Made by a program: the position numbers and the translations under genes
The notes under the pieces: model-generated
Told to the model about the DNA's origin: nothing
Database searches by the model: none
Seen by the model: the letters and a program-made list of their open reading frames with translations, nothing else
Part shown: positions 17,849 through 42,158 of the stretch, piece by piece
How positions within the stretch are numbered: the stretch's first letter is position 1
Layout of the letters: the number at the start of each line of letters is the position of its first letter
DNA from: a virus
Length of the DNA: 42,212 nucleotides
Virus record (IMG/VR): IMGVR_UViG_3300036845_000193
Span: 1 to 42,212 of that record
Strand: one strand, 5' to 3'

Positions 17849-17873
17849 CCGCTCACCCAGCTCCTGGAACACG

Positions 17874-18833: not shown

Positions 18834-18872
18834 TCAGCGCGACCGGCGGCCTCACCCAGAAAGTGAAAGGCC

Positions 18873-20069: not shown

Positions 20070-20083
20070 CCCCGTGAGGGATT

Positions 20084-20115
20084 GGGCGGCGCCTGCGGGC
20101 GTCGCCCTTTTTCTT
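20084..20115 (+). terminator. Rho-independent terminator after the capsid gene
   Basis: GGGCGGCGCC (20084-20093) pairs with GGCGTCGCCC (20098-20107) through a TGCG loop, a 10-bp stem with one G-T wobble, followed by TTTTTCTT. It lies 15 nt after the coat stop and would limit read-through into the tail genes. Confidence 0.88.
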
Positions 20116-20150
20116 GCTGCCTGCCGCCCTCGCACCCGTAGGAACGCCCC

Positions 20151-21523: not shown

Positions 21524-21526
21524 CCC

Positions 21527-21616
21527 GTGACCACCTGGACGCCCGCCCCGGCCCCAGATGACCCCGGCTGGTCGCCCCTGACGGTGGCCCCGCCCACCGC
21601 GTGGACCCCCCTCTGA
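21527..21616 (+). CDS. Tryptophan/proline-rich mini-protein (29 aa)
   Basis: A GTG-started 29-codon frame fills the gap between adaptor and fibre, and its TGA overlaps the fibre ATG. It reads TTWTPAPAPDDPGWSPLTVA, then PPTAWTPL, with three WTP/WSP units. Similar short W-P repeat peptides occur between adaptor and fibre genes of other phages. I call it with moderate confidence because of the coupling and the repeat. Confidence 0.45.
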   Translation: MTTWTPAPAPDDPGWSPLTVAPPTAWTPL

Positions 21617-24857: not shown

Positions 24858-25213
24858 CAGGCGTGCTCGCCGCCATGGCCACGAGCCGCAAGCCGCTCGG
24901 CTTGTCCGTCAGCACGCCGGGCGCCGCCGCCACCGGGACCACCAACGCCCACACGTTTCCGGCCGCCGTGGCGACGCCGTCCGGGGGGTCGGGCAACTAC
25001 AGCTTCGCGTGGTCGCTCACCAACACCGGCGGCACCTACGGGCAGTGGTCGTTCACCGGGCAGGGGACGGCCTCGGCGGTGCTCACGGCCACCATCGCCT
25101 CGATCATCGCCAACCTCAGCGCCACCGCGAACCTCTCGCTCACGCTCACCGACACCACCACCGGCCGCACGGTGAGCTTCGGCCCGGTTGCCTACAGCTA
25201 CAAGGCGAGCTGA
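24854..25213 (+). CDS. Ig-like fold virion protein (119 aa)
   Basis: ATGA-coupled to fibre 2. After a short start, the sequence is a regular beta sandwich: LGLSVSTPGAAATGTTNAHT, GGSGNYSFAWSLTNTGGTYG, ANLSLTLTDTTTGRTVSFGP. The GSGNYSFAWSL motif is typical of bacterial and phage Ig/PKD-like domains that decorate virions. It probably binds the fibre or another tail surface. Confidence 0.6.
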   Translation: MTGVLAAMATSRKPLGLSVSTPGAAATGTTNAHTFPAAVATPSGGSGNYSFAWSLTNTGGTYGQWSFTGQGTASAVLTATIASIIANLSATANLSLTLTDTTTGRTVSFGPVAYSYKAS

Positions 25214-25217
25214 CCGC

Positions 25218-26984
25218 ATGGCCCAACCCGCAATCGGCGCGAACCTCCTGGCGATCACCTTGCCGCCAGGGGTCTTTCGCAACGGCACCCAGTATCAGGC
25301 CGAGGGCCGCTGGTACGACTGCAACCTGATGCGCTTCTACGAGGGGGCGCTGCGCCCGATCGGCGGCTGGTCGCCCTTCTCGCCGAACAAGGTCACCGGC
25401 GCGCCACGCCGGATGATGGTGTGGGCCGACGACAAGTCGAACATCTGGGTGGCGGTCGGCACGCACAGCAACATCTACGCGTTCGACGCGGGCGGCGGCA
25501 TGAACGACATCACCCCGACCGGCTTCACGGTCGGGCGCGCCGACGCCACCAACCTCGCCGGCTACGGCGCCGGCCTCTACGGCCAGAACACCTATGGCGG
25601 CGCGGCGGCGGCGGCCAACGTGCTCAACCCGGCCACCGTGTGGTCGCTGGCGCTGCTGGAGCAGTACCTGGTCGGCTGCACCGTCGAGGACGGCTACCTC
25701 TACAAGTGGGACGTCAACCCCGGCCACAAGATGACCTCGCTGAGCACGGTCACCACCCTGGCCGGCGGCAGCACCAGCGCCGGCTCGGCCGTGGTGACCG
25801 GGATCACCAGCACCGCCGGGGCCAACCAGGGCGACCTGCTTTCCGGGACCAACGTGCCCGCCGGCGCCATCTACATCGCCTCGGTCGACAGCGCCTCGCA
25901 GATCACCATGACCGCCAACGCGTCGGCGACGGCGGTGGCCACCATCACCGCCACCGGCACGGCGCCGATCAACAACCGTGGCGTGCTGGTGACCGACGAG
26001 GGCTTCCTGATGGCGCTGGGGGCCAACGGCGACCCGCGCCTGGCCATGTGGGCCGACCAGGGCTCGTTCAGCCTGTGGACCCCCTCCACCACCAACCAGG
26101 CGGGCTTCTACTCGATCCAGACCGAGGGGCAGCTCATGTGCGGCTGCACGGTCGCCGGAGCCTGCGTGATCTTCACCAGCACCGAGGCGCACCTGGCCGT
26201 CTACCAGGGCTACCCGCTGCTGTACTCGTTCACCCTGCTCGGCGAGGGCTGCGGGATCATCTCGCAGGCGGCCTTCGTGAGCACCCACAACCAGGTCGCG
26301 TGGATGGGCGGCAACGGCTTCTGGTACTACAACGGCACCCTCAACCCGCTGCCATCCGACGTCGGCGACTACGTGTTCAGCCGGCTCAACCGCCAGCAGG
26401 CGTCGAAGATTTACGCCGTGCACCACCCCGGCTTCGGCGAGGTGACCTGGTACTACGTCTCGACCAACTCCACCGAGATCGACAGCTACGTGCTGTGGAA
26501 CTACCGCGAGAGCACCTGGAACATCGGCTCGATCACCCGCACCTGCGCCTTTGAGGCGGGCGTGCTGACCTACCCGCTGATGGTCGACCCCACCGGCCAG
26601 GTGTGGAACCACGAGTACGGCTACACCTCGGCCTACTACCCCGGCGTCGCGGCGGCCGGCCTCTACGCCGAGACCGGCCCCGTCGAGCTGAGCCAGACCT
26701 ACCGGGGCCTCGAAATCCAGGGCATCCACCTGGGCGAGAACGTCTGGGACGTGGTGCAGATGGAGCCCGACGCGCTCACCCTGGGCGACGGCACGGTGAG
26801 CTTCTACACCCGGTTCCACCCGACCCTCGGGACCGAGACCGCCTACGGCCCCTACACCCTGAAGAACCCCACCGACCTGCGCATGAGCGGCCGGCAGCTT
26901 CGGATGCGGGTGACGTGCGCCATGAACGGCGACGTGCGGTTCGGGTCCATCCGCCTCGACTTCCGGGCCGGCGGCAAGCGGTGA
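25218..26984 (+). CDS. Large tail protein, possible gp10-like hub (588 aa)
   Basis: ATG 25218; the start at 25188 would overlap the previous gene. The protein is strand-rich with many W/G turns: FRNGTQYQAEGRWYDCNLMR, GALRPIGGWSPFSPN, SNIWVAVGTHSNIYAFDAGG, NQVAWMGGNGFWYYNGTLNP and SYVLWNYRESTWNIGSITR. Blade-like repeats suggest a beta-propeller. Residues about 180-255 form an inserted domain (TSAGSAVVTGITSTAGANQG) with an Ig-like look. P22 gp10 (tail hub, DNA stabilisation) would fit by position, but that is inference. Confidence 0.6.
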   Translation: MAQPAIGANLLAITLPPGVFRNGTQYQAEGRWYDCNLMRFYEGALRPIGGWSPFSPNKVTGAPRRMMVWADDKSNIWVAVGTHSNIYAFDAGGGMNDITPTGFTVGRADATNLAGYGAGLYGQNTYGGAAAAANVLNPATVWSLALLEQYLVGCTVEDGYLYKWDVNPGHKMTSLSTVTTLAGGSTSAGSAVVTGITSTAGANQGDLLSGTNVPAGAIYIASVDSASQITMTANASATAVATITATGTAPINNRGVLVTDEGFLMALGANGDPRLAMWADQGSFSLWTPSTTNQAGFYSIQTEGQLMCGCTVAGACVIFTSTEAHLAVYQGYPLLYSFTLLGEGCGIISQAAFVSTHNQVAWMGGNGFWYYNGTLNPLPSDVGDYVFSRLNRQQASKIYAVHHPGFGEVTWYYVSTNSTEIDSYVLWNYRESTWNIGSITRTCAFEAGVLTYPLMVDPTGQVWNHEYGYTSAYYPGVAAAGLYAETGPVELSQTYRGLEIQGIHLGENVWDVVQMEPDALTLGDGTVSFYTRFHPTLGTETAYGPYTLKNPTDLRMSGRQLRMRVTCAMNGDVRFGSIRLDFRAGGKR

Positions 26985-27199: not shown

Positions 27200-27582
27200 C
27201 CGACCAGCCCGACGACTTCGACGCCAACTGGGCCCGCTGCGCGCCCTGGCTCCAGGCGGCGCTCGACCGCGATCCCAGCCACACGCTCGATCAGGTCAAG
27301 CACCTCTGCCAGACCAACCCGGCGCGCTACCACTTCTGGCCGGGCGACACCGCCGCCGTGGTCACCGAGATCGCCGACTACCCCGAGTACCGGGCGTTCA
27401 ACTCCTGGCTCGCAGGGGGATCGTTCGCCGAGATGACGCGCGGCCACGGCAGCGCCGAGGCGTTCGCCCGCGCGTGCGGCTGTCACCGCATGACCAGCCT
27501 GTCCCGCCTGGGGATGATGAAGCGCATGGCCCCGCTCGGCTACCGGCCCCTCTACGTGAAGATGTCGAAGGAGCTGACCTGA
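27196..27582 (+). CDS. GNAT-like virion assembly protein (128 aa)
   Basis: ATGA start. The pattern WARCAPWLQAALDRDPSHTL, HFWPGDTAAVVTEIADYPEY, FNSWLAGGSFAEMTRGHGSA, then EAFARACGCHRMTSLSRLGM and a final GYRPLYVKMSKEL matches a phage protein type I associate with an acetyltransferase-like fold, located before ejection proteins. It may aid head or ejection-protein assembly, as proposed for T7 gp13-type proteins. Catalysis is not evident. The next gene starts in its TGA. Confidence 0.5.
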   Translation: MTDQPDDFDANWARCAPWLQAALDRDPSHTLDQVKHLCQTNPARYHFWPGDTAAVVTEIADYPEYRAFNSWLAGGSFAEMTRGHGSAEAFARACGCHRMTSLSRLGMMKRMAPLGYRPLYVKMSKELT

Positions 27583-28895
27583 TGGGCAGCAAGAGCACGC
27601 AGAACCAACAGTCGCAGACCACCAACACCCTCGACCCGTGGGTGAAGGGCCTGCTGTCGACCAACGTCGCCCAGGCCGGCGCGGTGGCGGATCAGCCGTT
27701 TCAGGCGTTCGGCGGCGAGAGCGTGGCCCCGTTCACCGGCGCGCAAATCCAGGGGCAGGGGATGCTCTCGAACTTGGCCACCGACCCGACGCTCAACGGC
27801 GCCAACACGCTCAGCTCGGCCATCTCGGCGGCTCAGGCGTCGTCGGGCTACAAGCCGATGCAGGTGACGCCCACGACCGCGACGTCGGAGGGCTACGCCC
27901 CGACCAGCTACAACGCCTCGCTGCTCGACCCCAACCAAATCCAGTCGTTCATGGACCCGTATCTGGGGACGGTGGTCAAGAACACTGTCGACGCCTCCAA
28001 CCTGGCGCTCTCGCAGCAGGAGAACCAGAACAACGCCCAGTTCAACAAAGCCGGCGCGTGGCGCGGCTCGGCCATCGCGGTCCAGAACGCCAACGCGCAG
28101 GGGCTCAGCAACACCGGGCTCGACACCGCCGTGGGCAACCTCGAAAACACCGGCTGGAACACCGCCGCCGGCCTGGCGAGCGGGAACGTCGATCGCACCA
28201 ACACCGCCGCCGCCGCCAACGCCGGGGCCGCCAACACCGCCGCCCAGTTCGGGGCCAGCGCCGCCAACGCCGCCGCCGAGGCCAACGCCACCCGGGGCAT
28301 GACGGCGCAGCAGACCAACCAGGCCGCCGGCCTCACCGCCAACCAGCAGAACCAGGCCGCCTCGACGCTCCTGGCCAACCAGTCGGCGCAGCAGCTCACC
28401 CAGGGCCAGAGCTACGCCGACCTGCTCACGGGCGTCGGCGCCACCCAGCAGGCGCAGACCCAGGCGCAGGACACCTTCAACTACAACCAGTACCTCGCCG
28501 AGCGCGCCTACCCGGCCCAGCAGCAGGCCATCCGCAACGCGGCCCTCGGCCTCGTGCCCGCCACCACCAACAGCGCCAGCACGGGCTCGTCGACCAGCAC
28601 CACCGACCCGGGCATCGCCGCCGACATCGGCACCGCCATCTCCGACGCCTCGAAGCTCGCCCAGGCGGGGATGATGATGTCCGACGAGCGGATCAAGAAG
28701 GACGTCACCACGGCGGGGTGGGATCGTCGTGGCCGCCGGTGGGTCGACTTCCGGTACAAGACCGAGCACCCGGCCGCGCCGAAGCATCGCGGGCTCCTGG
28801 CGCAGGAGACCCTGCGCACCGACCCCCACGCCGTTGGCCGGCTCCCGGCCGGTGGCGGCCTGCTCGGCGTCGACTACGGCAAGCTGGCCGCGTGA
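27582..28895 (+). CDS. Virion ejection-type protein with C-terminal S74 chaperone domain
   Basis: 437 residues; ATG 27582 by TGATG overlap. Residues 1-345 are Gln/Asn/Ala-rich helices (GNVDRTNTAAAANAGAANTA) like DNA-ejection proteins. From M366 comes MSDERIKKDVTTAGWDRRGR, then WVDFRYKTEHPAAPKHRGLL, AQETLRTDPHAV and VDYGKLAA. This matches the S74 intramolecular chaperone (endosialidase-type), which cuts itself before the conserved Ser of the SD-x-R motif (S367-D368). Such domains usually finish fibres or some tail proteins. Here the chaperone may help fold a helical virion protein and then be removed. Confidence 0.7.
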   Translation: MGSKSTQNQQSQTTNTLDPWVKGLLSTNVAQAGAVADQPFQAFGGESVAPFTGAQIQGQGMLSNLATDPTLNGANTLSSAISAAQASSGYKPMQVTPTTATSEGYAPTSYNASLLDPNQIQSFMDPYLGTVVKNTVDASNLALSQQENQNNAQFNKAGAWRGSAIAVQNANAQGLSNTGLDTAVGNLENTGWNTAAGLASGNVDRTNTAAAANAGAANTAAQFGASAANAAAEANATRGMTAQQTNQAAGLTANQQNQAASTLLANQSAQQLTQGQSYADLLTGVGATQQAQTQAQDTFNYNQYLAERAYPAQQQAIRNAALGLVPATTNSASTGSSTSTTDPGIAADIGTAISDASKLAQAGMMMSDERIKKDVTTAGWDRRGRRWVDFRYKTEHPAAPKHRGLLAQETLRTDPHAVGRLPAGGGLLGVDYGKLAA

Positions 28896-28904
28896 GGCTG
28901 ACTC

Positions 28905-30509
28905 ATGTCCATGACCGACTACTACGCCGGGCCGCCGCTGACTCAGACGGGCCTGCTGGCGCTGCCGGGGGGTCCGGACCCCGGGCTGCTCGCGGCGGCT
29001 GCGCCGCCGGCCGCCGCGCCCCAGCTCGACCCGACCCTGGCGTTTGACCTGAACGCCGTCGCGCCGCAGCACGCCGACTTCACCCAGGGTCAGATCACCG
29101 GCCAGGCCAACGCCCCGTTGCCCGGCCTGCCGCCGGCTGACGTCAGCGGCCCGGGGGGAACCACCGGGGCCGTCGACAGCATCCTGGCGCAGGCCCCGCC
29201 CAGGCCGGTCAATCCGCTCTCGACCCCCGAGGGACTGGCGGCGTTCAACGCCAAGTTCCTGGCTGAGAACCCGCAGCCGGCCGACCCCAACGAAGTCAAG
29301 GGCAAGGGCGAGAAGGGGCTGTTCGCCAACCCGCAGTACAGCACCAAGCAGAAGTGGATGATCGGCCTGGCGGCCCTCGGCGACATCGGCGAGTCCTTGC
29401 GGGGCAAGGACACCAACGCCTACGCCACCCAGGCGGCCGGCTTCGACGCCGCCAACAAGGCCACCTACGACGCGGCCATCGCCGAGCACAACCGGGCCTA
29501 CATGCAGGCGTTCGCCGAAGCCGACCCGGACATCTCGCCCCTCGACAAGGCGTTCTTCCGCACCGCCGACACCGCGACCCTCAACAAGGCGCTCGGCACC
29601 CACCTGGAGGCGTTCAGCTTGCCCGGCGGCGACACCCGCTACCCCGGGCCCGGGGCAGCGCCCATCACCTCGCCGAAGCTGTTCGACACGCCCGGCGTCG
29701 CGGGGACCAACACCCCCGCCGGGGTGACGAGCCTGACGGTGCTGCCGGCGGGCGGCAAAGAAGCGGCCGAGCAGGAGCTGGCGGAGGCGCGCATCCGGTT
29801 GGTCAACACCCAGGCGGAGTACGAGAAGAGCCGGGCGCCGGACGCCGCCGCGCGGCTCCAACTGGAGAGGCAGAGGGTCGGCATCGCCGCCGGCCAGGCC
29901 CTCGCCTACGAGGCGCACCTCAGGCGAGTGACCCCGACAGACCTGGTGGGGAGCATCATGCAGAAGGTGCAGCAGTACGGCATCGGCAGCGTGACGGACC
30001 AGGACAAGGAGATGCTGAGGCTCAGCGACGAGTACACAGCGGGGAAGACGGCGAGGGGCCTGACCGACGCGGCCATGGGGCTGACGCCGAACGACCTGAT
30101 CCCCAGTGCGTCAGCTCCAGCAGCAGCGCCGGCCGTGGCCCCGAGGGTGGCTCCGCGCGTGGCCCCCCCACCCGTGCGCGGCCCGTTCGTTCCGCCGCCC
30201 TCCAGCGCGATGAACCCCGGCGGGATCGGCGCCGCGCCGCCAGCCGCCGTGGCGACGCCCACCGTCACGCGCCCCGCCGTCACGCGCCCCACCGTCTCGG
30301 CCCTCACGCCGCCGATCGTCGGCGCCCCGGTCCTCAACTCCGTGAACGCCGTCCTCGGCGCCCGGACCCCGGCGACGCCGGCCGCCGCCACTTCGCCAGG
30401 ACCAACCGCCTCGGACCTCACGCAGATGCAGACAGGCCGGGCCTACCAACTGAACGACGGCACGTATTGGGCCAAGACGCCCAACGGCACAGCGATGCAG
30501 GTGCGGTGA
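28905..30509 (+). CDS. Ala/Pro-rich virion protein, possible ejection protein (534 aa)
   Basis: ATG 28905, just after the previous stop. The first 90 residues are Ala/Pro/Gly-rich. Residues about 95-220 contain helices (AGFDAANKATYDAAIAEHNR), then a coiled coil (ELAEARIRLVNTQAEYEKSR). Residues about 400-495 are long Pro/Val/Ala-rich spacers before a short C-terminal motif (GRAYQLNDGTYWAKTPNGTA). The order and composition suit an internal virion protein ejected with the DNA, next to the giant protein. No catalytic motif seen. Confidence 0.6.
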   Translation: MSMTDYYAGPPLTQTGLLALPGGPDPGLLAAAAPPAAAPQLDPTLAFDLNAVAPQHADFTQGQITGQANAPLPGLPPADVSGPGGTTGAVDSILAQAPPRPVNPLSTPEGLAAFNAKFLAENPQPADPNEVKGKGEKGLFANPQYSTKQKWMIGLAALGDIGESLRGKDTNAYATQAAGFDAANKATYDAAIAEHNRAYMQAFAEADPDISPLDKAFFRTADTATLNKALGTHLEAFSLPGGDTRYPGPGAAPITSPKLFDTPGVAGTNTPAGVTSLTVLPAGGKEAAEQELAEARIRLVNTQAEYEKSRAPDAAARLQLERQRVGIAAGQALAYEAHLRRVTPTDLVGSIMQKVQQYGIGSVTDQDKEMLRLSDEYTAGKTARGLTDAAMGLTPNDLIPSASAPAAAPAVAPRVAPRVAPPPVRGPFVPPPSSAMNPGGIGAAPPAAVATPTVTRPAVTRPTVSALTPPIVGAPVLNSVNAVLGARTPATPAAATSPGPTASDLTQMQTGRAYQLNDGTYWAKTPNGTAMQVR

Positions 30510-30512
30510 CCC

Positions 30513-33500
30513 ATGGCTGACGGCTCGCGCCTCGCTGGTCCTTCCTACGCTCTGAGCGGCGGTGGGGATGGCGCCGCCACGCCCGCGTCGAACCTGACCG
30601 GACTGAGCGTGCAGCTCGGCTCCACGGCCGACCCCGATCCGGCCAGCCAGGGCGAGGCGCTGATGACCCTCGGGCAGTTGGGCACGACCCCCGAGCTGGC
30701 GCCCGGCGATCCCAACCGGCTCCTGATGTCGTCGGGCCTGCCGTTGCCCAACTACGCGCCCCCGCCGCTCGGCATCTGGGACGCGACGCGGGGGGCTCTC
30801 GCCGAGACCATCAGGGGCATCGGCACCCACGACCCCGAGGCGCTCGGCCGCGCGGTGGACTTCCTCACGGGCCAGCCGATCGGCCAGACGTCGCAGGCGC
30901 TCCGGGCCGGGACCGACATCGCCGCCGGCCAGACCAGCGAAATCCCCGCAGCCTTCGCCAACCTCATCCGTCACGAGAACGACCCGGGCATGACGCGCGG
31001 CCTGCCGATCGGCGAGGGCGCGGGCTGGGCGGCGGCCGAGAGCGACCTGGGCTTCCCCGCCCGCACCCAGCCCGCGAAGGGGCCCGACTACGCGCCGCCG
31101 GCCTTTGCGGCGCCCCTGGCCGCGCAAGGCGAGGCGAACGTCCCCGTCAACCCGGGCTTCGCCTCGCAGGTCGCGTTGCAGGTCCCGCAGCTCGCCGAGT
31201 TCGCCGGCCTCGCGGCTGTGCCTGAAGTCGGCGCGCCTCTCGCCGCCGCCGCGATGGGCGGCCAGGGCATCGTCGAGCAGCAGGAGAAGGCCGAGAAGGC
31301 GGGGCTGGCTGGCACGCCCGAAGCCTACCGCGCCGAGGCGCTGGCCGGCGGCCTCCAGGGCGGCCTGGCGCTGGCCCCGCTCGGCGCGGCGACGGGCGCG
31401 CTGCTGCCGGCCGGTCTGAAGCAGACCGGGCTCAACGTCCTGGAGCGGCTGGGGTTCGAGCAAATCCCGGGCTGGGTGGCGCGCGGCGCTGGGGAGCTGC
31501 CGGGCGGGGCGCTGTTCGGCGCGGGCTCTACGGTCGCCTCCAACCTCGCCACCCAGCAGCTCAACCCCAAGCAGGACTTGTTCGAGGGCGTCGTCCCCGG
31601 CTCGGCGCAGATGGCCGCGATCTCGCTGCTCACGGGGATCGCTCACGGCCACGGCGAGGCGCCGGTCTACACCCCCAAGGGCATCGAAGGGCCGGCGGCC
31701 GACGCCACCAACAGCTACCTCCAATCCCTGAGCGACGCGCACCTGGCCGCCGCCAACGCCGCCGACGATCCGATGCACATGATGGCGCATCTCAACGCCG
31801 CCCAGGCGCTGGCGGGCAAGACGATCACGCCCGAGCAAGCCACCAACATGGCCGCCACGGAGCGCCAAAAGGGCTGGCTGTTCCGAGGACAGCCGCCCGT
31901 CGCGCTCACCCCGCACGACGCGGCGGTCGACCGCGCCCAGGCGCGCATCGAGCAGATCGACCCCTCGGCCAAGCCGCCGCCAGAGTCAGAGTTCGCGCCG
32001 CCGACAACAGTCACCACGCCTGCGGTCGCCGATCTCAACCAACGCCTGGACGTTCTGGGGCGGGAGTACGCCGCGATGAGCGCCGCCGATCGCGCGTCGC
32101 CGCTCGGCCGGGCGATCGGCGTCGCCAACCAAGTCGGTGGCGTGCTCGGGCCCACGACGATGACGGGGGGCGTGGAGCACACGCCCATCTCGATCCAAAC
32201 CGTGCAGGCGATCCGCGCCGCCCGCGACGCCGGGCGCCAGGACGTGGTGCAGGCGATCCTGGATCGCGGTGACCGGCAGGCCGCGACCGCCGAGAGCGAC
32301 CCCGAGGGGCAGGCGTTTCTGGCGCAGCAGCTCCACACCGCCGCCAACGCGCCGCCGATCACTGACCCGGCCGGCGACGAGGCGTACCGCCAGGCCGTCG
32401 ACCTGGTGCAAGGCGGCGGCACGCCCCACCGCTACTTCGTCGGGCCGGCGATCGGCATCAGCCACGACGCGGCCGAACAGCACCTGCGGGAGATGACGCT
32501 CAACGGCATCGTGTCCAACGTCGACGAGCGTGGGCTGCGCACCCTCCTGCCTCCCGAGACTGGCGGCGCGCCGCCTCCCGTGACGACGCCGCCCGCCGCC
32601 ACGACTCAGCCGACCACCACCGAGCCCCCGCCTCCCGAGACGGTCACGCCAGGCGCAGAACCGACGACGACGCCGACCGTGCCGGCCGACATCAACCCGC
32701 TGGCGAAGCCGCCGGTCGACCCGCGCGACCAGGTCACCGTGATCTCCCACTACAACCCGCAAACCAGGGGCACCTACTACGGCGTCAGCATCAACGGGCG
32801 GACAGTGGTCGAGCCCACCCAGGGCGCCCAGAAAGCGTGGGAGCTGGCCCACGCCCTCGTGGGCCCGTTCCCGGCCGACCGCGTCATCGACACGGCCACT
32901 GTCGGGCCAGTACGTGCGCAAGGCGTGCCGGACGATCCGCAGCACGCGCACTTCGGACCCGCCGACCTGCCTCGCGAGGGGGCGCTGTCCCTGCCGGCGA
33001 TCCACCAGGCGTACTTCGCGGCCTACGGGTCCAACAAAACGGCGGCTGGACACGGCCTGGCGTTCCAGGCCGGCGCGCTCGGGGCTCCCCTCGACCCGGC
33101 GCTGAGCAAGAAGTTCCTACCGGCCTACATGGCGGGCTCGCGCTACCGCGACATGGCCATCAACGCCGGCGCGCCGACCGGGCCTGCCGCGCCCGTCGTC
33201 GCGCCCCGGCCGGCGCCCGTGGCGGCGGCGCCCGAGCCCACCGCGCCGCCCCCGCCGACGTTCCAGCACGGCGACACCGTCCACTGGACCGACAGCAAGG
33301 GCGTCAATCGCCAGGGCACGTTCGAGGGCACTTACGACGGCCATCCCATCGTCAGGCAACCGAGCGGCTGGGCGACGCTCCAGGCGGGTGTCGATCTGCA
33401 ACCGGGCCCGCACCCCGACCCGAACAGCGTCATGGTCACCCAGCCCGGCCAGAAGATGTCGGACGGGACGCAGCTCGCGGGCATGGATCATCCGCTCAAC

Positions 33501-36500
33501 TGGCCCGCCGACGTGCCGCCGATGGTCTACCACGGCTACGGGCGCCCCGATCAGGCCAGCGCCTACAACAGCGACTTCCACGGCATGACGACGCCGATCC
33601 TGGGACCCGGCCGCTACTTCGCCTTCAACAAGGCCGACGCCGGGGAGTTCGGCCCCAACGTCGAGAACGAGCTGGCCCCGCTCAAGAACCCGGTCGTGAT
33701 CCGCTCGGACGCGGATTGGAGAAACCTCACCGAGCAGGCCGGCTGGGACTTCGCCGGTATGCCCCAGGGGGAGGACATCGAAAACCTCCACTACATGCTC
33801 CTGGGCCGAGGCTACGATGGCGCGATCGTCCACTGGGACGACAACACCGAGACCGACAAGGACAGCCGGGGCAACTGGATCAAGCTGCTGCGCAACACCT
33901 TCGGCACGCCCCAGGCGGTCGACTTCACGCGCACCGCTGGCCCCGCTGAAATCGCCGCCAAGGCCGCCGCGCCGTTGCCCGAGCCCGAGCCCAAGCCCGC
34001 GCCCACTGACACCACCCCGGCCGGCGGCGGGGCTCCAGCGCCCGCCCAGGTGGCCCCCACGGTGGCTGGGACGCCGTGGGACTTCGTCGACACCTTCCCG
34101 ACGCCGCAGCCGGGCAGCGAGACGGTCTACGCCAACCCCAACGACGTCGCCGAGCAGCGCGCCTACCACGACGCGGTGGCCAAGCGGCTGCTCGGGCTAC
34201 AGCTCCAGGATCGCCAGCTCACCGCCGCGCTTGAGGGCGGTTACGACGTCGAGAGCGGGCGCCCGCTGGACGAGCTGAAGAACGGGGCCAAGGTCGAAGC
34301 CTCGATGAAGGAGGACCAGCGCAACGCGGCCGGCGCGTACCACGGCTCCCTGGAAGCCTACCGGAGCCTGTTCGGCGCGGACGCGGCCAACGCCTTCCGC
34401 GATCACATCGAAAACATGTTCGCCGGGCACACGCCGTTCCCCAAGGGGTACGAACGGGCGCAGGACGCCATCCGCGAGCACCACATCGCCACGGCGCTGG
34501 GCGAGCCCGCCGACAGGGGCAGCACGGCCCGCGCCTATGCCGGGTCGGAACGCTACGGCTTCCCCGGCGCGGACCCGACGACCAGGATCGCCCAGGCGAT
34601 GGAGCTGGCCCAGTTCCGGAGCAGGCTGGAGGCCGAGAACCCGAAGGGGCTCAAAGCGATCGACGCCCTCCCCGGCGGACCCCGCCCGGGCACCACGGGC
34701 GACATCGTCAAGCGCCTGGAAGCCGTCCTCGGCGCCACGAAAGACGGGCGCTCCCGTGTGGCGGAATACCTCGGCGCGCAGAATGACGAGATGAGGGGTT
34801 ATCGCCCGCACGGCGTCCCCCTCAGCCAGCAGCGCGGCCTCATGACGCCCTACACCCGCGACGCGGTGGACGCGATCCTCAACCCCGTGCTGGCCAGGCC
34901 CAACGAGCCGCCTCCCGAGCGCGCTGCGCGGCCGGGCGCGACGCAGGGCCTCACGGCGGCCGACTCGCTGGTGATGGACCCCAAGAAGAACGCGATGGGG
35001 AACGCCAACATCCAGTTGGCGACCGACGCCAACGGCCAGTGGTGGCACCGCACGACGGCCATGCACGCGGAGGGGACCGGCCTGTGGCCCGACCACCACG
35101 AGGGCCCGTTCGCCACCCGCGAAGAGGCGATCCGCGACGGCCTGGCGCGCATCCGCATCAGGATGGCCGAGCCCGAGCGGTACGGTCATCCCAGCGCCGT
35201 CGAAAAGAGCCAGATGGCCCAGCGCGCCAAGTTCCGGGCGTGGGCCGACACGGTCGAGGCCGGCCTGGCGAAGACGGCGCCGGCCGCAGGCCAGGGCGCG
35301 GCGACGCCGGCCGAGCCCACGGTCGCCCCGCCAAAGCCGGGCGAACGCTACGTGCCGATCGTGCCTCGCGGGACCGAGCAAGCCATCACGATGCCGATCG
35401 TCAAGACCGGCATGGCGCGCGCTCAAATCCAGGTCGGCCAGGGCGCGGACGGCAAGTGGTACGCCGGCCACGGCTACGAGCTGGGCGCCGAAACCGGAGC
35501 GCACATCCCGATCGGCCTGGGCCCCTACGACACGCGCGCCAAGGCGATCTTCGCCGCCGGGCTCGACCTCCACGCCAGCATGGTCCGCGACCTGGCCCAC
35601 TACGGCGACCGCGCCACGCCAGGCATGAGGGCGGCGGCCGAGCGCATCGGCAAGTGGCTGGCGACGGTCGATCCCGACAAAATCCCGCAGACCAGCACGT
35701 CGGCCCACGTCGTCGGCGCCGAGCCCGAGCGCCAGCCGCTCGACTACCGCCCGGGCGCCGCCGGCACGATCAGCGTACCCGGGCGGCCCGACCTCGCCGT
35801 GCAGTACGGCCTGGCCGAGGCCGGCGACCTCACCGCCTCGAACAACGCCGACTTCTCGGCCAACCCCGAGTACCCCGCCGAGCTGCAACCCCGTCAGCGC
35901 GACCGGGGCGCCATGCGTGGCCAGATCGCCGCCATGCTCAACCCCGAGCAGTTCCGTCCGGGGATGCTGGGAGCCTCCACCGAAATCGGCACGGGCGCCC
36001 CGATGGTCGGCCCCGATGGGGTGGTCGAAAGCGGCAACGGCCGGGTCATGGCGCTGCGCCAGATGTACGCCGAGGGCGGCCCGGCCGCGCAGGCTTACCG
36101 CGACTACCTGGAGAGCCAGGGCCACGACACCAGCGGCATGAAGCAGCCGGTCCTGGTGCGCGTGCGCCAGACGCCGCTCACTCGCGCCGAGCTGATCCCC
36201 TACCTCCAGGACGCCAACACCAGCGCCATCGCTAGGATGGGCGCCGGCGAGCAGGCCAAGGTCGACGCCTCCAAGCTCACTGGCGAGGTGCTGGACAGCT
36301 ACCGGGGCGGCAGCCTGACCAACGTCGAGAACGTCCCGTTCGTGCGCGCCGTGCTGGGCCAGATCGCCTCGCCCGCCGAGCTGAACCAACTGGTCGACGC
36401 CAAGGGCGCGCTGTCAGCCGAGGGTGTGCGCCGGCTGCAAGCGGCGTTCACCGCCAAAGCCTACGGCGACAACTCGCTGGTGCAGGCGATGTTCGAAAAC

Positions 36501-39500
36501 CCCAACCCGGACATGGGCACGCTGGGCAAGGCCGCCGTGGCCGTGGCGCCCCAGTGGGCGATGATGCGGGAGGCCGCCGCCAGGGGTGTGATCGACCCCG
36601 GGCTCGACCCCACCGACGCGCTCAACACCGCGTTCAGCCTGGTGCGCCAGCAGCGCGAGGGCGCCGTCAATCTCGCCGACAAGTACAGCAGCATCGACGC
36701 CTTCTCGGACGAGGACCCGCGCGTCGAGCGGTTCCTGCGGCTGTTCTACCAGGGCGACGGCTTCAGGCGCGTGCGGGCCGGCGACAACATCGCTCGCGAC
36801 CTCCAGGACTACACCGCCATGGCGCGGGCGCAGGCCACCAACGACATGTTCATGGCCCCCGCCCACGAGATGTCGACGGCCTTCCTGAACGGCCTGATCG
36901 AGCGCGCCAACACCGCCAAGGCCAAGGGCCAGCCCGAGCTGACGCTGGATGAACAGGCGCCGGGCGCGCTCTACACCCTGCCGGGGCGCGACGAGCCCGA
37001 AGGCGAGACGCCCGACCAGCTCGACCTCACCACCTGGCACGGCTCCCGCCACCTGTTCGGCCAGCCCGACGACCGCTTCATCGGCGAGGGCGAGGGCAAC
37101 CAGACCTACGGCTACGGCCACTACAGCGCCGGCAATCTCGCCACCGCCGAGACCTACCGCAACGCGGGCGGCGATCGTCGGCGCCTGGACACCTTCGGCA
37201 CGGAAGGCGAGCCCTGGCACGTGCAGCAGTTGGTCGAGAAGGCCCGCAACCACCTCGACATCACCACGGAGAAGGTCTCCGACATCACGCCCGAGGCTGT
37301 CGCGGGTGCTGTCGGCCAGCGGCTCGACAAAATCTGGCCTGAGCACGTGCTCCGGGACCCTGGCGCGCAGGCGCAGATCGCCCAGCACGTGGCCGACGTC
37401 GCCGACAGGGTGCGGCGGGGTGAGATGGGTGTTCGCGCCACCGGCACTGACGGCAACATCTACCGCTGGGAAGTCCCCGCGCACGACGAGTTCATCGACC
37501 ACGACCTGGCGCTCTCCGAGCAGTCGCCGAAGGTGCGCGAGGCGATGCAGCGGATCAGCGACCAGATCGCCATCGCCCGGCGCTGGGGCTACTCGCTCAA
37601 CGAGGTGCGCTCGCCGAACCGGGTGGACCGGATGGCCGAGCTGCTGGGGACGATGAAGCTGGGTTCGCGCGAGCGCCCGGACATCATGGAGGCGACCTCC
37701 CGCGAGGGACACGCAACCGGCTCTGACTTCTACCAGGAGCTGGCGCACTACGCCTCCGAGCACATCACGGAAGGGCGCACCAAGGCCACCGGCCCGCGCG
37801 AGGCCACCCGCGTGCTGCGGGAGGAGGGTGTCGCCGGCCTGAGCTACCTCGACCATCGGTCGCGCGACGTGCTCAACATCGACAAGTTCCGCCGGCAGGT
37901 GGTCGCGGGCGAGAAGCGGCTGCGCGAGTACGGTCCCAACCCGCCCCAGAACATCATCGACCAGCTCAGCCGGGCGCGCTTCGCCCTGGAGTACGCGGAG
38001 GCGATCAAGAACCCCACCTGGAACTACGTCACCTTCGACCCGAGCCGCATCCAGGCCGAGCGGGTGGAGGAGGGCGAGCACCCCGAGCCGGCGACTCTGG
38101 AGGACCGCGAGCACCCCGAGGCCGACACCCTGGAGCGCCCCGAACCCGACCCCCTGGTGGGCCGTGGCCGGCGCCGCCCGGCGGGCACGATCGCCGAGGC
38201 CCAGGCGCGCGGCGTGGTCGGCTTCACCTCCTCCAAGATCAAGCGCGTCGACCAGATGGCGCACGAGCTGGGCAAGCTGCTCGGCGTGCCGATCCGGGTC
38301 GGCCGGATGGGTGGCGGGACGCTAGGCTACTTCGTCCCCAGCACGGGCGAGACGAAGGTCAAGTGGTTCGACGAGTACAACACCGTCGCGCACGAGCTGG
38401 GCCACGCGCTGGAGCTGCGCGACCGGGGCCTCTACCCCGAGCTGAACAAGGCCATCAAGGCGCACGCGGGCGAGCTGCGCCCCATCGACTACATCCCCAA
38501 CCGGGCGAACAAGACGGTCGGCCTGCACGAGGGGTTCGCCGAGTTTTTCCGCTACTACATGACCAACCAGAACCACGTGCTGCGGGAGACGCCGAACTTC
38601 TACAAGGCGTTCGAGGCGGCGCTGGCCAAGGACAACCCGAAGCTGCTCGCCGGGCTCCGCGAAATCCAAAAGGACTACCACGACTTCCTGGCCTCGGGCC
38701 CGACCGAGCACCGCAACGTGCTCCACCCCAGCGAGTACATGGTCAAGAAGGGCCCGGCCGCCTGGGCGGCCATGGCCAAGGACGCCGCGAGCCGTCCGAT
38801 GGGCTGGATCGGCGAGCTGGCCGACGAGGCTTACCGTCGCTACATCGACCACCTCAACCCGCTGAAGATCGCCCGCAACCGGCTCATGGCGATCCGGGCC
38901 CACAACCTCGGCTACCGCGAAGACCTGCCGGCGTGGCGCGACCCCTACAAGCAGGCCCAGATGGGGGTCGACGCCTACAGTGCGGCCCACGCCGACCTGG
39001 TGTACGGCGTCCACAAGTACCACACCAACGAGCTGGCCAACGTCCCGCAGGGCGCGCCGGCGCCGGGCACGGCGGCCATCCCCGACCGGCCCGCGTCGTC
39101 GCTGTACGCGGCCCTCGAACATGCCGTGGGCAGGCCGCCGGGCGTGCTGACGCCGGGCGCCAGGTGGGACATCAACCAGCTCGCCGAGTTCGGCCACTAC
39201 CTGGTCGCGCGCCGGTCGGTGCAGCTCTGGGATCGCTACAACCGGAAGCAGCTCCGACGCCCCCCGGATGGCCTCTCGGCGACCAGCAACAAGAACGCGG
39301 TGATCTGGTACGAGCAGCACAACCCCACGTGGGCGAAGGCCGCCGAGATGGTCTACGAGTACAACCGGGCGCTGTGGGACAAGCGCCTCGACAGCGGCCA
39401 GATCACCGCACAAATCCACCGCCTCGGGATCGAGATGAACCCCGACCACGTGCCGTTCGCGCGCACCCGGAAGGGGCGCCCCGGCGGCTCGGGCGGCGAA

Positions 39501-42158
39501 GGCGATGTGGGCGGATCGGGCGGCGGCAACCTGCGTCACGCGGGCGGCGCGCACGCCATCACCGGCGACTTCGGCGCGGTCATCAACCCGATCCAGACGA
39601 TCATGGAGCAGACCCACGCGCTGCACCAGTTCATGGCCCAGAACGACGTCAACCGGGCCCTGTTCAAGCTGGCCGACGAGGCGGGTACGCGCAGCTCCGA
39701 CATCCTCACCCGCGTCCCGACCACGACCCGCGCGCCTGTCCAGGTCGACGCCCTGGAAGCCTTCAAGACCGCCGCCATCGCGGCCGGCGCCGACCCCAAC
39801 GAGATCGCGGCGCTGGGGCAGGACATCGAGAGCCTGCTGGCCGGCGAGACCACGGCCACGATGTGGAGGACGGTCGACGCCAAGGAGACGCGCACCCCCA
39901 CCATCTACGCCTGGGTGAACGGCCAGCGGATCGCCGGGGAGCTGGCCGACAGCCAGTTCGGCCACCAGCTCCGCAACGTGCTCGACGGCATGGACCGCGA
40001 CAGCAAGAACCTGCTGGTGAGCGTGCTGCGCGGGACCACCACGTCGCTGCGGGCCGGCGTGGTGACGCACCCGACGTTCATCCTGGCCAACTACATCCGG
40101 GGCGAGATCGCCGACGCCCTCAACACCAACGTCGGGTTCATCCCGTTCTGGCACGGCGGGCAAGGCGCCTGGGCCGACATCACCCAGTCCGACCTCACTA
40201 GGCGCTACGCGGCGGCGCGCGGCATCGTCGGCGGCACCGTCGTGGCCAGCATGGACAAGGCGCGCACGCAGAAGAGCATCAGCGCCCTCAACCGGGGCCG
40301 CGTCCAGATCAGGCGCGTCAGCTCCCTGTCGGGCCTGATGCACCTCACCGAAATCTCCGAGACCGCCAACCGCCTGGGCATCTTCCTGGCCGGGTCGAAG
40401 TATTTCCAGAACCGTGGGATGACCCCCTGGCAGGCCGACCAGGAGGCGGCGTTCGAGGCCCGCGACGCCCGCAACTACGCCAGGCGTGGCGCGCACATGG
40501 GCTCGATCAGCAAGATCGCCGCCTTCCTCAACGCCTCCGTGCAGGGCGCCGAGAAGTACGTCCGCACCGGGACCGGCGACTACAACATCCACAACCTGGC
40601 CATGCAGGCGATGGGCTGGCAGCAGCAGCGCGCGCTCACCGGCCAGGGCAAGCCGGCCCCGGCCGGGCCGCCGCCCCTTCCTCCCGGCGCCCGCAAGCCG
40701 ACCTTCTCCAACCTCACCCCGAACGAAAGCCGCCAGCTCACGCAGACCATCCGGGCCTACACGTTCCTGACCGCCGCCGGCCTGCTCTACGCCGGCTACA
40801 AGTACGGGACCGGCCTCGACAAAGACCCGGAGTATCAGAACGTGCCGCCCGAAATTCGCGGCAGCCACTGGGTGTTCAAGGGCCCCGGCGGCGACATGCT
40901 CGTCGTGCCCAAGCCGTTCGAGGGCTCGATCGTGCTGGACGCCATCGAGCGCGCGTTCGAGTACGCGGCGACTCAGAACCCTGAAATCCTGCCCTACCTG
41001 GGCGAAGACCTGGAGCGGTGGATTTTCCCGCCGGTCGACATCCCGGCGCTGTCGATGGTCAAGCAGCTCGCCACCAACCGCGACGACCGTGGCGCGCCGT
41101 TCATCCAGCAGGTGCTCACCGGCAAGTTCAACCAGGGCGCGCCGATCATCCCCGAGAGCAAGATGGGCCTCGACCCGCAGTTCCAGACCAACTCCTACAC
41201 GTCCTACCTGGCCAAGGTGGTCGGCGCGGGGCTGCACGTGGCGCCGGCCGACATCGACGTGATGCTCTCCGGGGTGCTCGGCAACTGGGGGCAGACCATC
41301 GAGCACGCGAGCAACGTGTTCGAACCCGGGCGCCCCAAGCGGGCCGACACGCCCGAGAACAACTGGATCACCGGCCGCTTCCTCAAGGACCCCGACCGCA
41401 ACGCCCTGCCGACGCGGGTGTTCTGGGACAACATGGCGCAGAACGGCGGCACGCTCGCCCAGGTCAAGGCGACCGTCGACAACCTGCGCACCAACGGCGA
41501 CACCGCCAACCTGATCACCTACGTCAACGGCCTGCCACCGGCCGAGAAGCAGTACGCCGAGCTGGCGCTCATCCCCGGGGGCTACCAGGAATACCACCCG
41601 ATGAACCGCGCCGCGAAGGTGGTCGCCCAGGTCGGCGACATCCGCCGCGAGCTGGAGGCGGGTGAACTCACCACGCTGCAAGGCCAGCGCATCCGCCTGA
41701 CTCCCGAGCAGATCGTGGTGGTCGACCGCGCCCTCGAACACTACGCCGTGGGTGAGATGGGCGACGCGCTCACCCTGATCGGCCAGAAGGGCTGGGTGCA
41801 GAAGCCGCTCGCCCCCTACGCCGACCTGCGCCAGGGCGTGATGAAAGTCAGCCCGGCCGTGGCCCGCACGCTCCAGCAGCGCATGGCGATGGCCGGCATC
41901 CTCCTGGGCGAGCAGAACATGGCGGCGTGGCAGAAGATCGCGCCGCACATCTCGGACACCTACCAGAAGTTCGGACCCGCCAAGCTGGCCGAGGCGGGGC
42001 GGCTGAACAGCCCGCAAGGGATGATCCGCCAGATCGAGCTGAACGCCGCAAACAGCAACGCGCCCGACGCGCCCGACGAGGCGCCACCCGCTGCGCCTGA
42101 GCCGGCGGCGGCCGAGCCCGAGCAGGCCATGGCCGACACCGGCGGCGCCGAGCCCTGA
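30513..42158 (+). CDS. Giant polyvalent protein (3,881 aa) with several enzymatic domains
   Basis: One uninterrupted frame. Visible parts are listed by residue. About 216-383: Ala/Gly-rich hydrophobic segments. 617-690: FtsK-gamma-like winged helix (AYRQAVDLVQGGGTPHRYFV, HLREMTLNGIVSNVDERG). 1004-1095: ADP-ribosyltransferase-like (MVYHGYGR, GPGRYFAF). 1495-1725: two copies of an unknown module. About 1755-2100: DdrB/ParB-like (VVESGNGRVMALR, 1837 on). 2175-2510: second ADP-ribosyltransferase (WHGS, GYGHY, then EEGVAGLSYLD, NYVTFD). 2590-2700: zincin with HELGH at 2627-2631 and EGFAE after it. About 3400-3605: LPD38-like. By family precedent (polyvalent proteins) it is probably injected to modify host targets or protect phage DNA. 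Confidence 0.85.
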   Translation: MADGSRLAGPSYALSGGGDGAATPASNLTGLSVQLGSTADPDPASQGEALMTLGQLGTTPELAPGDPNRLLMSSGLPLPNYAPPPLGIWDATRGALAETIRGIGTHDPEALGRAVDFLTGQPIGQTSQALRAGTDIAAGQTSEIPAAFANLIRHENDPGMTRGLPIGEGAGWAAAESDLGFPARTQPAKGPDYAPPAFAAPLAAQGEANVPVNPGFASQVALQVPQLAEFAGLAAVPEVGAPLAAAAMGGQGIVEQQEKAEKAGLAGTPEAYRAEALAGGLQGGLALAPLGAATGALLPAGLKQTGLNVLERLGFEQIPGWVARGAGELPGGALFGAGSTVASNLATQQLNPKQDLFEGVVPGSAQMAAISLLTGIAHGHGEAPVYTPKGIEGPAADATNSYLQSLSDAHLAAANAADDPMHMMAHLNAAQALAGKTITPEQATNMAATERQKGWLFRGQPPVALTPHDAAVDRAQARIEQIDPSAKPPPESEFAPPTTVTTPAVADLNQRLDVLGREYAAMSAADRASPLGRAIGVANQVGGVLGPTTMTGGVEHTPISIQTVQAIRAARDAGRQDVVQAILDRGDRQAATAESDPEGQAFLAQQLHTAANAPPITDPAGDEAYRQAVDLVQGGGTPHRYFVGPAIGISHDAAEQHLREMTLNGIVSNVDERGLRTLLPPETGGAPPPVTTPPAATTQPTTTEPPPPETVTPGAEPTTTPTVPADINPLAKPPVDPRDQVTVISHYNPQTRGTYYGVSINGRTVVEPTQGAQKAWELAHALVGPFPADRVIDTATVGPVRAQGVPDDPQHAHFGPADLPREGALSLPAIHQAYFAAYGSNKTAAGHGLAFQAGALGAPLDPALSKKFLPAYMAGSRYRDMAINAGAPTGPAAPVVAPRPAPVAAAPEPTAPPPPTFQHGDTVHWTDSKGVNRQGTFEGTYDGHPIVRQPSGWATLQAGVDLQPGPHPDPNSVMVTQPGQKMSDGTQLAGMDHPLNWPADVPPMVYHGYGRPDQASAYNSDFHGMTTPILGPGRYFAFNKADAGEFGPNVENELAPLKNPVVIRSDADWRNLTEQAGWDFAGMPQGEDIENLHYMLLGRGYDGAIVHWDDNTETDKDSRGNWIKLLRNTFGTPQAVDFTRTAGPAEIAAKAAAPLPEPEPKPAPTDTTPAGGGAPAPAQVAPTVAGTPWDFVDTFPTPQPGSETVYANPNDVAEQRAYHDAVAKRLLGLQLQDRQLTAALEGGYDVESGRPLDELKNGAKVEASMKEDQRNAAGAYHGSLEAYRSLFGADAANAFRDHIENMFAGHTPFPKGYERAQDAIREHHIATALGEPADRGSTARAYAGSERYGFPGADPTTRIAQAMELAQFRSRLEAENPKGLKAIDALPGGPRPGTTGDIVKRLEAVLGATKDGRSRVAEYLGAQNDEMRGYRPHGVPLSQQRGLMTPYTRDAVDAILNPVLARPNEPPPERAARPGATQGLTAADSLVMDPKKNAMGNANIQLATDANGQWWHRTTAMHAEGTGLWPDHHEGPFATREEAIRDGLARIRIRMAEPERYGHPSAVEKSQMAQRAKFRAWADTVEAGLAKTAPAAGQGAATPAEPTVAPPKPGERYVPIVPRGTEQAITMPIVKTGMARAQIQVGQGADGKWYAGHGYELGAETGAHIPIGLGPYDTRAKAIFAAGLDLHASMVRDLAHYGDRATPGMRAAAERIGKWLATVDPDKIPQTSTSAHVVGAEPERQPLDYRPGAAGTISVPGRPDLAVQYGLAEAGDLTASNNADFSANPEYPAELQPRQRDRGAMRGQIAAMLNPEQFRPGMLGASTEIGTGAPMVGPDGVVESGNGRVMALRQMYAEGGPAAQAYRDYLESQGHDTSGMKQPVLVRVRQTPLTRAELIPYLQDANTSAIARMGAGEQAKVDASKLTGEVLDSYRGGSLTNVENVPFVRAVLGQIASPAELNQLVDAKGALSAEGVRRLQAAFTAKAYGDNSLVQAMFENPNPDMGTLGKAAVAVAPQWAMMREAAARGVIDPGLDPTDALNTAFSLVRQQREGAVNLADKYSSIDAFSDEDPRVERFLRLFYQGDGFRRVRAGDNIARDLQDYTAMARAQATNDMFMAPAHEMSTAFLNGLIERANTAKAKGQPELTLDEQAPGALYTLPGRDEPEGETPDQLDLTTWHGSRHLFGQPDDRFIGEGEGNQTYGYGHYSAGNLATAETYRNAGGDRRRLDTFGTEGEPWHVQQLVEKARNHLDITTEKVSDITPEAVAGAVGQRLDKIWPEHVLRDPGAQAQIAQHVADVADRVRRGEMGVRATGTDGNIYRWEVPAHDEFIDHDLALSEQSPKVREAMQRISDQIAIARRWGYSLNEVRSPNRVDRMAELLGTMKLGSRERPDIMEATSREGHATGSDFYQELAHYASEHITEGRTKATGPREATRVLREEGVAGLSYLDHRSRDVLNIDKFRRQVVAGEKRLREYGPNPPQNIIDQLSRARFALEYAEAIKNPTWNYVTFDPSRIQAERVEEGEHPEPATLEDREHPEADTLERPEPDPLVGRGRRRPAGTIAEAQARGVVGFTSSKIKRVDQMAHELGKLLGVPIRVGRMGGGTLGYFVPSTGETKVKWFDEYNTVAHELGHALELRDRGLYPELNKAIKAHAGELRPIDYIPNRANKTVGLHEGFAEFFRYYMTNQNHVLRETPNFYKAFEAALAKDNPKLLAGLREIQKDYHDFLASGPTEHRNVLHPSEYMVKKGPAAWAAMAKDAASRPMGWIGELADEAYRRYIDHLNPLKIARNRLMAIRAHNLGYREDLPAWRDPYKQAQMGVDAYSAAHADLVYGVHKYHTNELANVPQGAPAPGTAAIPDRPASSLYAALEHAVGRPPGVLTPGARWDINQLAEFGHYLVARRSVQLWDRYNRKQLRRPPDGLSATSNKNAVIWYEQHNPTWAKAAEMVYEYNRALWDKRLDSGQITAQIHRLGIEMNPDHVPFARTRKGRPGGSGGEGDVGGSGGGNLRHAGGAHAITGDFGAVINPIQTIMEQTHALHQFMAQNDVNRALFKLADEAGTRSSDILTRVPTTTRAPVQVDALEAFKTAAIAAGADPNEIAALGQDIESLLAGETTATMWRTVDAKETRTPTIYAWVNGQRIAGELADSQFGHQLRNVLDGMDRDSKNLLVSVLRGTTTSLRAGVVTHPTFILANYIRGEIADALNTNVGFIPFWHGGQGAWADITQSDLTRRYAAARGIVGGTVVASMDKARTQKSISALNRGRVQIRRVSSLSGLMHLTEISETANRLGIFLAGSKYFQNRGMTPWQADQEAAFEARDARNYARRGAHMGSISKIAAFLNASVQGAEKYVRTGTGDYNIHNLAMQAMGWQQQRALTGQGKPAPAGPPPLPPGARKPTFSNLTPNESRQLTQTIRAYTFLTAAGLLYAGYKYGTGLDKDPEYQNVPPEIRGSHWVFKGPGGDMLVVPKPFEGSIVLDAIERAFEYAATQNPEILPYLGEDLERWIFPPVDIPALSMVKQLATNRDDRGAPFIQQVLTGKFNQGAPIIPESKMGLDPQFQTNSYTSYLAKVVGAGLHVAPADIDVMLSGVLGNWGQTIEHASNVFEPGRPKRADTPENNWITGRFLKDPDRNALPTRVFWDNMAQNGGTLAQVKATVDNLRTNGDTANLITYVNGLPPAEKQYAELALIPGGYQEYHPMNRAAKVVAQVGDIRRELEAGELTTLQGQRIRLTPEQIVVVDRALEHYAVGEMGDALTLIGQKGWVQKPLAPYADLRQGVMKVSPAVARTLQQRMAMAGILLGEQNMAAWQKIAPHISDTYQKFGPAKLAEAGRLNSPQGMIRQIELNAANSNAPDAPDEAPPAAPEPAAAEPEQAMADTGGAEP

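What the first reader, a model, noticed from the sequence alone, without database searches (positions are those of the whole stretch)
30513..42158. 3,881-residue polyvalent protein with two ADP-ribosyltransferase-like domains, ParB-like domain and zinc protease
It fills more than a quarter of the window. Known polyvalent proteins (described in phages and conjugative elements, e.g. P1 DarB-like) are ejected with DNA and carry mixed effector domains. This one combines YHG...GRYF and WHGS...GHY ADP-ribosyltransferase-like domains, a DdrB/ParB-like GNGR motif, HELGH protease and an LPD38-like end. It could modify host targets or defend incoming DNA.
Basis: partly seen in the sequence, partly recalled or inferred. 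Interest (0 to 1): 0.72.

Follow-up and report, generated by a model that had tools for sequence, protein, structure and literature searches.

The report
Giant phage-injected polyvalent effector protein
The last gene of this short-tailed phage genome encodes a 3,881-residue protein that is probably packed in the virus particle and injected with the DNA, carrying two ADP-ribose-transferring domains, a ParB-like domain and a protease; it is a new member of an already described kind, the phage polyvalent proteins.

Summary
Window 30513-42158 is one real ORF of 3,881 codons, coding throughout. All five domain claims check out: ART1 (1002-1140), DdrB-like ParB (1761-1885), ART2 (2166-2516), HELGH zincin (2577-2729) and LPD38 (3438-3604). 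Family-conserved catalytic residues are not lost, although the third ART residue cannot be assigned. The genome is a P22-like podovirus, and the gene sits last in the head/tail/ejection operon. VvAW1, BA3 and Vibrio phage 1.211.A have their giant protein in the same place. The C-terminal ~1,080 residues (zincin plus LPD38) form a shared chassis found on 71 ORFs here. What lies upstream varies: DarB methylase-helicase, DdrB-ParB, ART, pyrophosphatase, lysozyme or RadC. Here the payload is ART + ParB + ART with no methylase-helicase. A homologue of the C-terminal module, JC1 gp69, is a mass-spectrometry-proven virion protein. Best reading: a virion-ejected effector whose zincin cuts the payload from the chassis so the ARTs and ParB act on the host early. 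Ejection, cleavage and targets are inferred. Iyer et al. (2017) describe this class, and ART+ParB fusions occur in other contigs. Verdict: new member of a known kind.

The parts
30513..42158 (+). 3,881-aa polyvalent protein gene
   Evidence: Open frame, GC3 0.90-0.97 throughout; homologues in the same frame from residue 1010 to 3660
31155..31712 (+). Ala/Gly-rich hydrophobic stretch (residues 215-400), no family match; possibly membrane or ejection-associated (inference)
   Evidence: Composition; no Pfam match
33516..33932 (+). ART1, ADP-ribosyltransferase-like domain (residues 1002-1140); H1007, Y1035; third residue D1102 or Q1134
   Evidence: PF18760 E 1.6e-4, below gathering score; homologue in L147, 38% identity, phmmer E 3.6e-20
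34980..35687 (+). Two divergent tandem copies of a ~100-aa segment (about residues 1485-1590 and 1625-1725), unnamed
   Evidence: Local alignment score 61 against shuffles of mean 29, sd 5, maximum 55 in 500
35793..36167 (+). DdrB-like ParB domain (residues 1761-1885) with GNGR at 1841-1844; homology extends to about residue 2136
   Evidence: PF18763 E 8.6e-28, 97.4 bits against cut-off 27.6; P1, P7 and D6 DdrB-type proteins 32-33%; alignment A6
37008..38060 (+). ART2, ADP-ribosyltransferase-like domain (residues 2166-2516); H2176, Y2204, D2447, N2504
   Evidence: Family profile 268 bits (the profile was built with this domain as seed), residues invariant; 54/59 family members match PF18760
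38241..38699 (+). Zincin metallopeptidase (residues 2577-2729), HELGH 2627-2631, EGFAEF with E2673/E2677
   Evidence: Motif residues invariant with three podoviruses; profile 124 bits
39837..41480 (+). C-terminal chassis (residues 3109-3656) containing LPD38 (3438-3604)
   Evidence: PF18857 E 1.6e-18; profile 436 bits; JC1 gp69 and BcepIL02 gp70 match at E ~1e-17
28905..30509 (+). 534-aa gene directly upstream, no family match; in the position of virion-associated JC1 gp68 by order only
   Evidence: no sequence match to JC1 proteins
27474..28895 (+). DNA-ejection-like virion protein with a Peptidase_S74-type C terminus
   Evidence: phrog_4287 E 1e-15; PF13884 E 9e-5
15758..26984 (+). P22-like portal, scaffold, major head protein, adaptor, tail-spike-like pair and virion structural protein that fix the gene context
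   Evidence: PHROG matches, Pfam SU10 adaptor

Best explanation
This is a phage-type large polyvalent effector of a P22-like podovirus. Step 1 (inferred): it is made late, with the head and tail proteins, and packaged through its C-terminal zincin-LPD38 chassis and/or an N-terminal signal. Step 2 (inferred): it is ejected with, or just ahead of, the DNA. Step 3 (inferred): the zincin, which lies exactly at the payload/chassis junction, cuts the polypeptide so that the payload separates from the virion-anchored part. Step 4 (inferred): ART1 and ART2 use NAD+ to ADP-ribosylate host macromolecules, as T4 Alt does with host RNA polymerase, while the DdrB-like ParB domain acts as an NTP-dependent nickase/NTPase or, as P1 DdrB does, helps load virion effectors. 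Shown here: the architecture, the conserved active-site residues, the gene position, and the constant chassis with an exchangeable payload.
For: Gene is the last of a podovirus morphogenesis operon, right after an ejection-like protein. VvAW1 (3,640 aa), Vibrio phage 1.211.A (2,715 aa) and BA3 (2,631 aa) carry their giant protein in the same position, homologous only over the C-terminal part starting at residue 2577. 74 IMG/VR loci carry the zincin. Among 71 ORFs with both parts, the zincin-to-C-terminal-module gap has a median of 324 aa while the stretch upstream of the zincin varies up to 2,957 aa. Payload types: methylase-helicase, DdrB-ParB, ART, pyrophosphatase, lysozyme, SLT, RadC. JC1 gp69 shares the C-terminal module (E 1.2e-17) and is in purified virions with 51 unique peptides (PMC9144972). 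P1 DarB and DdrB are head proteins and DarB carries an N-terminal capsid-targeting signal (PMC9024508). Iyer et al. predict injection, zincin processing and host modification for this class (PMC5512222).
Against: No direct evidence of packaging, cleavage or activity for this protein. ART1 scores below the Pfam gathering cut-off and ART2 has no direct Pfam hit. The third catalytic residue is ambiguous in both: the strand-5 position looks like Q1134 in ART1 and N2504 in ART2, with D1102 and D2447 as alternatives. In L147 the ART1-like domain lacks the strand-1 histidine, so at least one relative may be inactive. JC1 gp69 lacks this zincin at profile sensitivity. Residues 1-1000 have no detectable homologues. 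No structure model could be made.
Confidence: 0.72

Rival explanations
1. The protein is mainly structural or ejection machinery. The ART- and ParB-like domains are packaging or assembly modules (as P1 DdrB aids loading of DarB) with little catalysis in the host.
For: P1 DdrB is listed as aiding DarB addition to the capsid. ART2's strand-5 residue is an asparagine in nearly all family members, which is unusual for the H-Y-[EDQ] clade. The ART1-like domain of L147 has lost its histidine.
Against: H2176, Y2204 and D2447 are invariant across 59 diverse sequences, the pattern of a kept active site. The payload is exchanged for plainly enzymatic ones on the same chassis.
Confidence: 0.15
2. The ARTs and ParB protect the incoming DNA against host defences (restriction or NAD-dependent immunity) rather than reprogramming the host.
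For: The same chassis carries DarB-type methylase-helicase in VvAW1-like phages, and P1 DarB is antirestriction. ADP-ribosylation is used on both sides of phage-host conflict (PMC9503650).
Against: The methylase-helicase itself is absent here (profile searches). No defence target is known for this ART family in the papers read.
Confidence: 0.3
3. The domains act after lysogeny or at lysis, for example as a toxin released with the cell contents, and not on entry.
For: HYD2-type ARTs are shared with bacterial polymorphic toxins (PMC9503650). Portal relatives lie in Phenylobacterium and other bacterial contigs, probably as prophages.
Against: Late virion operon position and the virion-proven homologue JC1 gp69.
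Confidence: 0.06

Closest known systems
Vibrio phage VvAW1 gp1, the 3,640-aa 'DarB-like antirestriction' protein (AFH14473)
   Same: Same operon position, similar size, homologous zincin and LPD38-type C-terminal half
   Different: Payload is methylase plus SWI2/SNF2 helicase; no DdrB-ParB and no ART detected
Burkholderia phage JC1 gp69, 4,515 aa (Lessievirus; BcepIL02 gp70 alike)
   Same: Podovirus, last gene of the morphogenesis module, homologous C-terminal module with LPD38, mass-spectrometry-proven in virions
   Different: DarB methylase-helicase payload with an LT-like lysozyme; zincin not detected by the profile; no ART
Phage P1 DdrB
   Same: DdrB-like ParB domain, 33% identity over 314 residues, plus a zincin in the same protein (PMC5512222); a head protein
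   Different: Much smaller (108.7 kDa); no ART and no LPD38 described
IMG/VR loci L147, L124, L130, L136, L178
   Same: Same zincin-C-terminal chassis, each with one of the same payload parts: ART1-like (L147), DdrB-ParB (L124, L130), ART2 (L136, L178)
   Different: None carries ART1 + ParB + ART2 together
Roseovarius Plymouth podovirus 1 vRNAP-type polyvalent protein
   Same: ART domain in a giant zincin-containing podovirus protein; prototype of the polyvalent ART family (PMC5512222)
   Different: Payload is an N4-like RNA polymerase
Phage T4 Alt
   Same: Works alike in the proposed reading: a head-packaged ART injected to modify host proteins
   Different: R-S-E clade ART, a single-purpose protein, not a polyvalent protein (PMC5512222)

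Membership tests
Phage-type polyvalent proteins (Iyer et al. 2017) | Domains of unrelated activities combined in one polypeptide | tested here: met
   ART, ParB, zincin and LPD38 in one ORF
Phage-type polyvalent proteins (Iyer et al. 2017) | Late/virion gene context | tested here: met
   Follows portal, scaffold, head, tail and ejection-like genes; same place in VvAW1, BA3 and 1.211.A
Phage-type polyvalent proteins (Iyer et al. 2017) | Injected into the host with the DNA | not testable with these tools
   Only by homology to virion proteins (JC1 gp69, P1 DdrB/DarB)
ART-PolyVal, PF18760 | Score above the family gathering cut-off | tested here: not met
   ART1 22.9 bits against 31.2; ART2 no direct hit. 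Related families or remote members, not filed as curated members
ART-PolyVal, PF18760 | Homology to the family through intermediates | tested here: met
   54 of 59 ART2 family members match PF18760, best 1.5e-8
ART superfamily, H-Y-[EDQ] clade | His in strand 1 and Tyr in strand 2 | tested here: met
   H1007/Y1035 and H2176/Y2204; the latter pair invariant in all 59 sequences
ART superfamily, H-Y-[EDQ] clade | E, D or Q in strand 5 | tested here: inconclusive
   Candidates D1102 or Q1134 (ART1), D2447 (ART2; N2504 at the PARP-like position); no structure available
DdrB-like ParB, PF18763 | Gathering score and the conserved active-site arginine | tested here: met
   97.4 bits against 27.6; R1844 in GNGR invariant in A6
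Zincin metallopeptidase of polyvalent proteins | HExxH plus a downstream glutamate | tested here: met
   HELGH 2627-2631 and EGFAEF invariant in four proteins. No Pfam peptidase model reaches its cut-off
LPD38, PF18857 | Gathering score | tested here: met
   67.9 bits against 27
DarB antirestriction proteins | Adenine methylase (NPPF) plus SWI2/SNF2 helicase | tested here: not met
   Profiles built from VvAW1 find neither in this protein

The most novel reading that the evidence does not exclude
P22-like podoviruses use a constant ~1,080-residue zincin-LPD38 chassis as a general protein-delivery module, onto which unrelated effector payloads are swapped and from which the zincin releases them in the host. 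This phage replaces DNA methylation by a double ADP-ribosylation plus ParB payload, a different early-infection strategy.
Probability: 0.3. Interest if true: 0.6.

Novelty: new member of a known kind. Interest (0 to 1): 0.36.

Why it matters
It adds a two-ART architecture to a class whose activities are largely predicted. It also shows, by comparing 71 ORFs, a fixed C-terminal module with an exchangeable N-terminal payload, which makes delivery and release by the zincin testable. If the chassis alone suffices for packaging and release, it would be a natural protein-delivery carrier.

Tried and rejected
Near-DNA search of the phage collection: no match. Direct scans of viral contigs with the ParB region and the C-terminal region as single sequences found no relative; alignments did. 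Whole-record searches of 50 portal-bearing contigs, 10 portal-bearing genomes and 199 related genomes gave nothing but one weak 71-residue match. These have no positive control and many records are fragments, so absence is not shown. ART1 alone has no phage match. Solved-structure searches with ART2, zincin and ART1 profiles gave no significant match; PARP12 at E 0.91 is only suggestive. NCBIfam: none for this protein. Chance ORF rejected. DarB membership rejected.

Full report
What was checked. The window is a complete 42,212-base IMG/VR virus record. The ORF at 30513-42158 reads 3,881 codons without a stop. At 70% G+C long chance frames are common: the opposite strand has one of 1,296 codons. 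So coding was tested: third-position G+C is 0.90-0.97 in every 300-codon step, with first 0.62-0.77 and second 0.44-0.59. Homologues match in this frame from residue 1010 to 3660.

Domains. Pfam finds DdrB-like ParB (1761-1885, E 8.6e-28) and LPD38 (3438-3604, E 1.6e-18) above their cut-offs. ART1 gives PF18760 ART-PolyVal at E 1.6e-4, below the cut-off. ART2 has no direct Pfam match, but an alignment-based scan of viral contigs returned at least 455 relatives. In the 59-sequence alignment A3 the window copy keeps all 18 invariant positions, including H2176, Y2204, D2447, S2450 and R2451, and 54 of the 59 match PF18760. ART1 has a 38% identical homologue inside a 3,790-residue protein, L147, that carries the same C-terminal half. 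The zincin HELGH and the later EGFAEF are invariant with three cultured podoviruses.

Catalytic residues. His and Tyr of the H-Y-[EDQ] clade are present in both ARTs. The third residue is not settled. PMC5512222 gives H-Y-D for the polyvalent family, with the D in strand 5; PMC7955679 describes E, D or Q in strand 5. D1102/Q1134 and D2447/N2504 are the candidates. In L147 the strand-1 His is missing, so some relatives may be inactive.

Context. The upstream operon encodes a P22-like portal, scaffold, coat, adaptor, two tail-spike-like proteins, a virion protein and an ejection-like protein. In VvAW1, Vibrio phage 1.211.A and BA3 the giant gene occupies the same place, yet only residues from about 2577 on are homologous. 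Portal relatives in bacterial contigs are mostly alphaproteobacterial, several in Phenylobacterium, which suggests but does not prove a similar host.

Chassis and payload. 74 IMG/VR loci encode the zincin. With home-made profiles, 71 ORFs carry zincin then C-terminal module, with a median gap of 324 residues, while the stretch upstream of the zincin ranges up to 2,957 (some ORFs are cut by contig ends). Upstream parts found: methylase-helicase, DdrB-ParB (L124, L130), ART2 (L136, L178), ART1 plus methylase-helicase (L147), and in 37 non-redundant payloads lacking the helicase part also pyrophosphatase, lysozyme, SLT and RadC. None shows this window's ART1 + ParB + ART2 set. The census is biased by its seeds, which came from Vibrio-type phages. 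A scan for ParB relatives found ART+ParB in one polypeptide elsewhere (L320; ART-like motif in L264, L296, L301), so the combination is not unique in kind.

Virion evidence. JC1 gp69 and BcepIL02 gp70 share the C-terminal module at E ~1e-17. JC1 gp69 was found in CsCl-purified virions with 51 unique peptides, second to the major capsid protein by score (PMC9144972). P1 DarB and DdrB are head proteins, and 30 N-terminal residues of DarB target a reporter to the capsid (PMC9024508).

Mechanism. Iyer et al. (PMC5512222) predict injection, zincin processing and host modification by ARTs for this class, with T4 Alt as a model. The zincin's constant place at the payload/chassis junction fits release of the payload (inference). 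The likeliest sequence is packaging, ejection, self-cleavage, then ADP-ribosylation of host targets by two ARTs with a ParB domain acting as NTP-dependent nickase/NTPase or loading factor. None of these steps was shown here, and targets are unknown.

Verdict. New member of a known kind, with a payload set not seen in the other ORFs surveyed.

Noticed in passing
window 11943-12677 and 14836-15570: The terminase large subunit is split into an ATPase ORF (PF03237 positions 2-159) and a nuclease ORF (PF03237 164-212 plus PF17289), 2.2 kb apart, with several small ORFs between. The split is conserved in L002 (2.1 kb gap) and L003 (1.1 kb gap), while L054-L057 and other relatives are contiguous. No Rfam intron was found.
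   Followed up: partly
window 34980-35687 (residues about 1485-1725): Two divergent tandem copies of a ~100-aa segment without a family name precede the ParB domain.
   Followed up: partly
window 21601-22935 and 22935-24857: Two adjacent tail-spike-like proteins match the same PHROGs (4013, 29706), suggesting duplication.
   Followed up: no
window 27474-28895: Ejection-like protein ends in a Peptidase_S74-type chaperone domain, more usual in tail spikes.
   Followed up: no
window 8508-9224 and 9597-10283: Transposase-like HTH protein and a serine resolvase (PF00239, E 1e-25) upstream of the packaging genes.
   Followed up: no
L147:3776-4318: ART1-like domain on a DarB-type methylase-helicase protein; keeps Tyr and GxDG but lacks the strand-1 His.
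   Followed up: partly
L104:4555-10479: Contig vir555, with host written as Methanomicrobiales, carries an ART2-family domain in a 1,974-aa protein next to an internal virion protein.
   Followed up: no
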